64,000 bases of DNA from Hoplostethus atlanticus (taxonomy: Eukaryota; Chordata; Actinopteri; Trachichthyiformes; Trachichthyidae), in contig JAXDDX010000015.1 in NCBI GenBank assembly GCA_034670405.1, positions 4,804,001 through 4,868,000 of the forward strand, written 5' to 3'. The notes beneath the pieces are model-generated. The model had not been told where the DNA came from and ran no database searches. It was given only the letters and a program-made list of their open reading frames with translations. Within the stretch, counting starts at the first letter, position 1. Every line of letters begins with the position of its first letter. Both the position numbers and the translations under genes were made by a program. Below, piece by piece: positions 55,804-55,864 of this stretch.

Positions 55804-55864
55804 CTGGGAACATAAGCACAGCAAACACCCATGACAGGATGAAGAAACATACCGAGTTGTACAT
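55804..55864 (-). CDS. First coding exon (signal peptide) of an IgLON-family gene, NTM/OPCML type
   Basis: Minus-strand ATG at 55,864, with A at -3 (GGAAGCATG), opens MYNSVCFFILSWVFAVLMFP plus one base of a Gly codon, then a GTAAGA donor at 55,803-55,798. This is a compact signal peptide with a phase-1 exit. From memory, the alternative first exon of human OPCML starts [10 protein letters not shown] and that of NTM contains MHNSISWAIF. Each covers 20 residues from that methionine plus a split Gly before VPVRSG of the first Ig-like domain exon, so length, MYN/MHNS start and phase agree. IgLONs are GPI-anchored neuronal adhesion proteins. I cannot separate NTM from OPCML, and the next exon (acceptor, then V-P-V-R-S-G) is not in this window, as expected from the family's huge first introns. 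Chance or another immunoglobulin-superfamily gene remains possible. Confidence 0.55.

What the first reader, a model, noticed from the sequence alone, without database searches (positions are those of the whole stretch)
55804..55864. IgLON-type alternative first coding exon embedded in a gene desert-like window
A signal peptide with good Kozak context, exact family length (20 residues plus split Gly), MYN/MHNS-like start and phase-1 donor fits the alternative first exon of NTM or OPCML. If right, it names the host locus of the whole window and makes most of the DNA below 55.8 kb intron 1.
Basis: partly seen in the sequence, partly recalled or inferred. Interest (0 to 1): 0.75.

Follow-up and report, generated by a model that had tools for sequence, protein, structure and literature searches.

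The report
Fish OPCML alternative first exon (1a)
A short stretch of fish DNA encodes the alternative signal peptide of OPCML, a known brain cell-adhesion gene, which identifies the gene this DNA belongs to but is otherwise ordinary.

Summary
On the minus strand, 55864..55804 reads MYNSVCFFILSWVFAVLMFP plus the first base of a split Gly, ending CAG|GTAAGA, a phase-1 donor. The 21-residue leader is 19/21 identical to OPCML records of Sebastes fasciatus and Scophthalmus maximus, 18/21 to Megalops, 17/21 to gar, but 7/21 to human OPCML 1a and 6-8/21 to three tetrapod NTM leaders. Of 117 fish-search hits, 31 carry this leader type and 78 the longer 1b leader. Seven of eight chosen isoform pairs are identical after the leader, as expected of alternative first exons. 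Published primers fix the 1a/1b naming. tblastn of 234 IgLON proteins (E up to 0.01) found only this exon in the window; none of 56 ORFs of 100 aa or more reaches a Pfam cut-off. So 1..55803 is most likely the start of the 1a-to-1b intron. The acceptor exon, transcripts and neighbouring genes could not be tested. This is an orthologue of a known exon, so interest is low.

The parts
55804..55864 (-). Coding part of opcml exon 1a: MYNSVCFFILSWVFAVLMFP plus first base of a split Gly (signal peptide)
55798..55803 (-). 5' splice donor GTAAGA after exonic CAG, phase 1
   Evidence: sequence; the phase fits the Gly that precedes VPARSG in fish OPCML. Use of the donor is inferred, no RNA.
55865..56067 (-). 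Presumed 5' UTR and core promoter side: in-frame stop at 55948, TTTAAA box whose first base is 56067
   Evidence: function inferred, start site unknown
1..55803 (-). Presumed 5' part of the 1a-to-1b intron (at least 55.8 kb). No other OPCML coding sequence found.
   Evidence: no IgLON Ig exon or 1b leader found; 56 of 56 listed ORFs of 100 aa or more in the whole window without a Pfam match at cut-off
56068..64000 (.). DNA upstream of the exon; no gene recognised

Best explanation
This is exon 1a of opcml (IgLON1/OBCAM) in a ray-finned, probably percomorph, fish, on the minus strand. A distal promoter starts transcription to the right of 55864. The exon supplies its own signal peptide and is spliced through a phase-1 donor over a long intron to the common exon (1b'') that begins VPARSG and the first Ig domain. 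The alternative 1b promoter, further downstream and outside the window, supplies a different leader of about 28 residues. Both leaders are expected to be cleaved, so the choice of promoter would set where and when the same GPI-anchored neural adhesion protein is made. Shown: leader identity and length, donor and phase in the window, and identical tails of paired isoforms in related fish. Inferred: promoter position, splicing in this species, leader cleavage, expression role.
For: Leader 19/21 to Sebastes and Scophthalmus OPCML, 18/21 Megalops, 17/21 gar and eel. 31 of 117 hits have a leader of this type directly before VPARSG, and 78 the 1b type. 7 of 8 isoform pairs that I chose are identical after the leader; the eighth compares two Sebastes representatives that agree over the first 146 residues. 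tblastn E about 8e-8; all 19 matches at E up to 0.01 from 234 proteins fall on this exon. One unnamed 1a-type record (P0127, 16/21) is encoded on a contig of only 2,480 bases, which suggests a spliced transcript (inference). Polypterus OPCML (13/21) bridges the teleost and tetrapod forms, 11/21 to human 1a. The human OPCML 1a primer translates to SATTAL, within [21 protein letters not shown], and the 1b primer to LRLLFLV. PMC5288359 (sections 5 and 13 and passages): 1a transcripts are 1a + 1b'' + exon 2. PMC4409639 (passages): mouse Lsamp exon 1a lies 1.6 Mb upstream of 1b.
Against: No RNA from this species, and no acceptor exon in the window. One search, a search with the 21 residues alone padded with X, returned no candidate. 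By my own count P0123 and P0126 share eight 5-residue words with that query, so I treat this as a limit of the word filter, but it means that the database hits come from queries to which I had attached IgLON Ig1 sequence; the tblastn and 21-mer scans test the window in the other direction. 24 of the 31 fish records are named 'isoform X2', which I take to be gene-model predictions, not proven transcripts. Two of the 117 hits are named neurotrimin-like (P0197, P0198); both carry the 1b leader, and P0197 is identical after the leader to P0147, named OPCML homolog, so names in this family are not fully reliable.
Confidence: 0.95

Rival explanations
1. It is exon 1a of NTM (neurotrimin/CEPU-1), the neighbouring paralogue with the same twin-promoter design.
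For: Same leader length, an MHNS start in mammalian NTM leaders, and the same place before the common exon. Two fish records with OPCML-like sequence are named neurotrimin-like.
Against: Three tetrapod NTM leaders are only 6-8/21 identical and end LQG or FQG; the window ends FPG as OPCML does. The first search carried an NTM-type Ig1 stub, yet none of the 120 hits listed (of 307) is an NTM record with this leader. Fish NTM leaders were not specifically collected, which is a gap.
Confidence: 0.03
2. It is a dead copy: a retained or duplicated opcml 1a exon (for example after the teleost genome duplication) whose downstream gene is lost or not spliced to it.
For: No downstream opcml exon is visible in 64 kb; Megalops has two OPCML records on contigs of different length.
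Against: Start codon, open frame, hydrophobic core, donor and phase are all intact. The two differences from the nearest relatives are F for I at residue 8 and M for V at residue 18, both conservative. By analogy with mouse Lsamp the 1a-1b intron may be very long anyway.
Confidence: 0.02
3. Chance open frame with a signal-peptide look.
For: Short hydrophobic frames are common.
Against: Next best of 127,876 six-frame 21-mers is 8/21; tblastn E about 8e-8.
Confidence: 0.002

Closest known systems
Teleost OPCML 1a-type leader (Sebastes fasciatus isoform X2, P0126; Scophthalmus maximus OPCML-like, P0123)
   Same: 19 of 21 residues, same length, Gly as last leader residue
   Different: residue 8 (I there, F here) and residue 18 (V there, M here) only
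Mammalian OPCML exon 1a (human P0112; NM_001012393 is named OPCML1a in PMC5797424)
   Same: 21-residue leader, MY start, PG end
   Different: only 7/21 identical
NTM exon 1a leader
   Same: 21-residue hydrophobic leader, same place in the gene design
   Different: 6-8/21 identical in three tetrapod examples, ends LQG or FQG instead of FPG
OPCML exon 1b leader ([28 protein letters not shown] type)
   Same: alternative leader for the same protein
   Different: usually 28 residues; first 21 residues share 2-5 with the window leader in the typical cases (8 in P0161, an odd record starting MYNSQ); reported as one exon with the common part in rodents and human; not found in the window

Membership tests
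OPCML exon 1a | 21-residue leader matching orthologues | tested here: met
   19/21 best match; 31 of 117 fish-search hits of the same type
OPCML exon 1a | Phase-1 donor directly after the leader, splitting the Gly codon | tested here: met
   CAG|GTAAGA at 55804/55803; a Gly precedes VPARSG in fish OPCML. Intron phase in the relatives themselves was not seen (proteins only).
OPCML exon 1a | Not contiguous with the common exon (unlike 1b) | tested here: met
   Leader runs into a donor; no VPVRSG-like or Ig1 coding sequence in the window by regex or tblastn
OPCML exon 1a | Spliced to common exon 1b'' and the three Ig domains of OPCML | not testable with these tools
   Exon lies outside the window; the genome search gave no answer in 9 tries
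OPCML exon 1a | Own active promoter | not testable with these tools
   Only a TTTAAA box at 56067 seen
NTM exon 1a | Leader closer to NTM than to OPCML | tested here: not met
   6-8/21 to three tetrapod NTM leaders against 19/21 to fish OPCML; fish NTM leaders not collected

The most novel reading that the evidence does not exclude
The 1a leader keeps several residues across the 31 fish examples (W12 in 30, F7, A15 and P20 in 29 each, C6 in 28), although many of the 31 are closely related carps and I did not compare it with other signal peptides. It may do more than target the protein, for example set trafficking or efficiency differently from the 1b leader. If so, the twin-promoter design would be a conserved protein-level switch as well as a transcriptional one.
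Probability: 0.1. Interest if true: 0.45.

Novelty: already known. Interest (0 to 1): 0.15.

Why it matters
It gives an otherwise featureless 64 kb fish window a gene name and orientation. It also shows that 21-residue 1a-type leaders next to 1b-type leaders, the OPCML design described in mammals, occur in protein records of fish from gar, tarpon and eel to percomorphs. It does not change what is known about IgLON genes.

Tried and rejected
NTM assignment: rejected on identity, though fish NTM leaders were not collected directly. Other OPCML exons in the window: regexes and tblastn of 234 proteins at E up to 0.01 found none; at E up to 10 the best off-exon match of the first 120 proteins plus the chimera was E 0.035. 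Other genes in the window: 56 of 56 stop-to-stop ORFs of 100 aa or more listed have no Pfam match at the curated cut-off; the six weak lines had E 0.055-0.18, below cut-off (at E up to 1, at E up to 0.1). Exons shorter than 100 aa, and frames running off the window ends, are not excluded by this. tRNAs: none. Rfam: only a UnaL2 LINE element. The bacterial promoter/terminator scan has no bearing on a fish gene. A leader-only protein search gave nothing. Literature: a search for IgLON + teleost + evolution + exon found one paper, on another subject by its title and the start of its abstract (listing only). The zebrafish negr1/opcml paper PMC10969947 (four passages) has no occurrence of exon, isoform or signal peptide. 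PMC8268470 (one passage) gave nothing on exon order. led to the papers cited; one search gave nothing useful. These were term searches of an open-access library, so absence there is weak.

Full report
What is there. The window is 64,000 bases without N. On the minus strand an ATG at 55864 opens MYNSVCFFILSWVFAVLMFP, then a single G at 55804 and GTAAGA. The coding part is exactly 61 nt, the donor leaves phase 1, and the last exonic bases are CAG. The base at -3 of the ATG is A, at +4 it is T. An in-frame TGA at 55948 closes the frame upstream, with no in-frame ATG in between. The points of the observation hold.

Is it more than chance? Comparing the leader of Sebastes fasciatus OPCML with all 127,876 six-frame 21-mers of the window gives 19/21 here and 8/21 for the next best. 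tblastn of the 234 IgLON proteins fetched gives 19 matches at E 0.01 or better, all at this place, the best about 8e-8. No shuffled control was run.

What it is. A first search (window leader plus a recalled mammalian Ig1 stub) gave 307 proteins, of which the best 120 were listed and read. Their leaders include gar, tarpon and eel OPCML with 17, 18 and 17 of 21 residues identical, tetrapod OPCML 1a-type leaders with 7, and a turtle CEPU-1 with 6. A second search (window leader plus tarpon OPCML) gave 117 proteins; every named one is from a fish. Sorted by the end and length of the leader, 31 have a 21-residue leader of this type, 78 have the 1b leader of the [10 protein letters not shown] kind, and 8 are left over; of those 8, P0155 is a partial 1a type and P0165 a 1b type that the pattern missed. 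Length was part of the sorting, so '21 residues' is not an independent result, but no full-length 1a-like leader of another length was left over. Sebastes fasciatus and Scophthalmus maximus stand closest (19/21), then tarpon (18/21); carps and loaches are at 8-10/21, catfishes at 7/21. So the source is probably a percomorph fish (grouping recalled); this rests on one short exon and is tentative. A third search, with the leader alone, returned nothing, which I take as a limit of the word filter.

OPCML or NTM. Three tetrapod NTM leaders (kangaroo, turtle, frog) score 6-8/21 and end FQG or LQG, whereas the window and most OPCML leaders end PG (29 of 31 fish 1a leaders have P at residue 20). Polypterus OPCML is intermediate: 13/21 to the window and 11/21 to human. 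Two of the 117 hits are named neurotrimin-like (P0197, P0198); both carry 1b leaders, and P0197 is identical after the leader to P0147, named OPCML homolog, so I take at least that name as a mislabel. Fish NTM leaders were not collected.

Which of the two first exons. PMC5797424 (section 7 read; passages, including Table 1) lists human 1a- and 1b-specific primers. Translated, OPCML 1a gives SATTAL and 1b gives LRLLFLV, so the MYHP/MYNS leader is 1a and the MG...LVP leader is 1b. PMC5288359 (sections 5 and 13 read; passages) describes 1a transcripts as 1a + 1b'' + exon 2 and 1b transcripts as 1b' + 1b'' + exon 2, with 1b' and 1b'' two parts of one exon. PMC4409639 (passages) places mouse Lsamp exon 1a 1.6 Mb upstream of 1b. 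In the window the leader is followed by an intron, as expected of 1a. Seven of eight fish isoform pairs that I chose are identical over the whole 315-319 residues after the leader. The eighth compares Sebastes fasciatus with a record named for S. umbrosus, and agrees over 146 residues before the tails differ.

How it works. The supported model is alternative promoter use: promoter 1a lies just right of 55864, its transcript carries this leader and is spliced across a long intron to the common exon. PMC5288359 and PMC5797424 state (passages), citing Pimenta and Levitt 2004 (not read), that the leaders are removed and the mature proteins are the same. By that account the exon serves regulation. 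None of this was measured for this fish. One unnamed 1a-type protein (P0127) is encoded on a contig of 2,480 bases, too short for a gene with a long intron, so it may be a transcript; this is inference.

The rest of the window. Nothing else of OPCML was found. None of 56 listed ORFs of 100 aa or more reaches a Pfam cut-off. There are no tRNAs and one LINE 3' element. Self-comparison shows dispersed repeats and imperfect palindromes. The stretch 1..55803 is therefore best read as intron, and the 1a-to-1b intron is longer than 55.8 kb if the exon is spliced as proposed. PMC6906185 (passages) places NTM, OPCML and IGSF9B in one human genomic regulatory block, which fits a gene-poor setting; conservation of non-coding elements was not tested here.

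Verdict. Confirmed and ordinary: an orthologue of a known exon of a known gene.

Noticed in passing
window 20328-20383 (-): UnaL2 LINE 3' element (Rfam RF00436, 58.3 bits, E 5.7e-9), marking a 3' end of a LINE in the presumed intron.
   Followed up: partly
window 20483-20801: Imperfect palindrome of 319 bp, 83% identical to its own reverse complement; looks like a MITE. Weaker ones at 5678-5990 (70%) and 36905-37034 (73%).
   Followed up: no
window 2439-2620, 11785-12178, 28859-29232, 58630-58749: Dispersed repeat family in both orientations, shorter alignments 79-87% identical and one longer alignment 68%.
   Followed up: no
window 30386-30829 and 60008-60408: Inverted pair of diverged copies (69%) of an element.
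   Followed up: no
window 54751-55500: CpG observed/expected about 1.1-1.2 in 500-base steps against 0.56 for the window, 0.3-1.1 kb inside the presumed intron from the donor; 56251-57000 also reaches 0.92-0.93. Possibly part of a promoter region.
   Followed up: no
window 55674-55721: Perfect (GA)24 microsatellite about 80 bases inside the intron from the donor.
   Followed up: no
P0088 (Polypterus senegalus OPCML): 18 extra residues between the 1a-type leader and VPVRSG, like the extra exon 1a' described for rodent Lsamp; may be a real cassette exon or a prediction error.
   Followed up: no
P0161 (Sinocyclocheilus anshuiensis): Record whose leader starts MYNSQ like 1a but continues as 1b; an odd gene model or a fused exon.
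   Followed up: no
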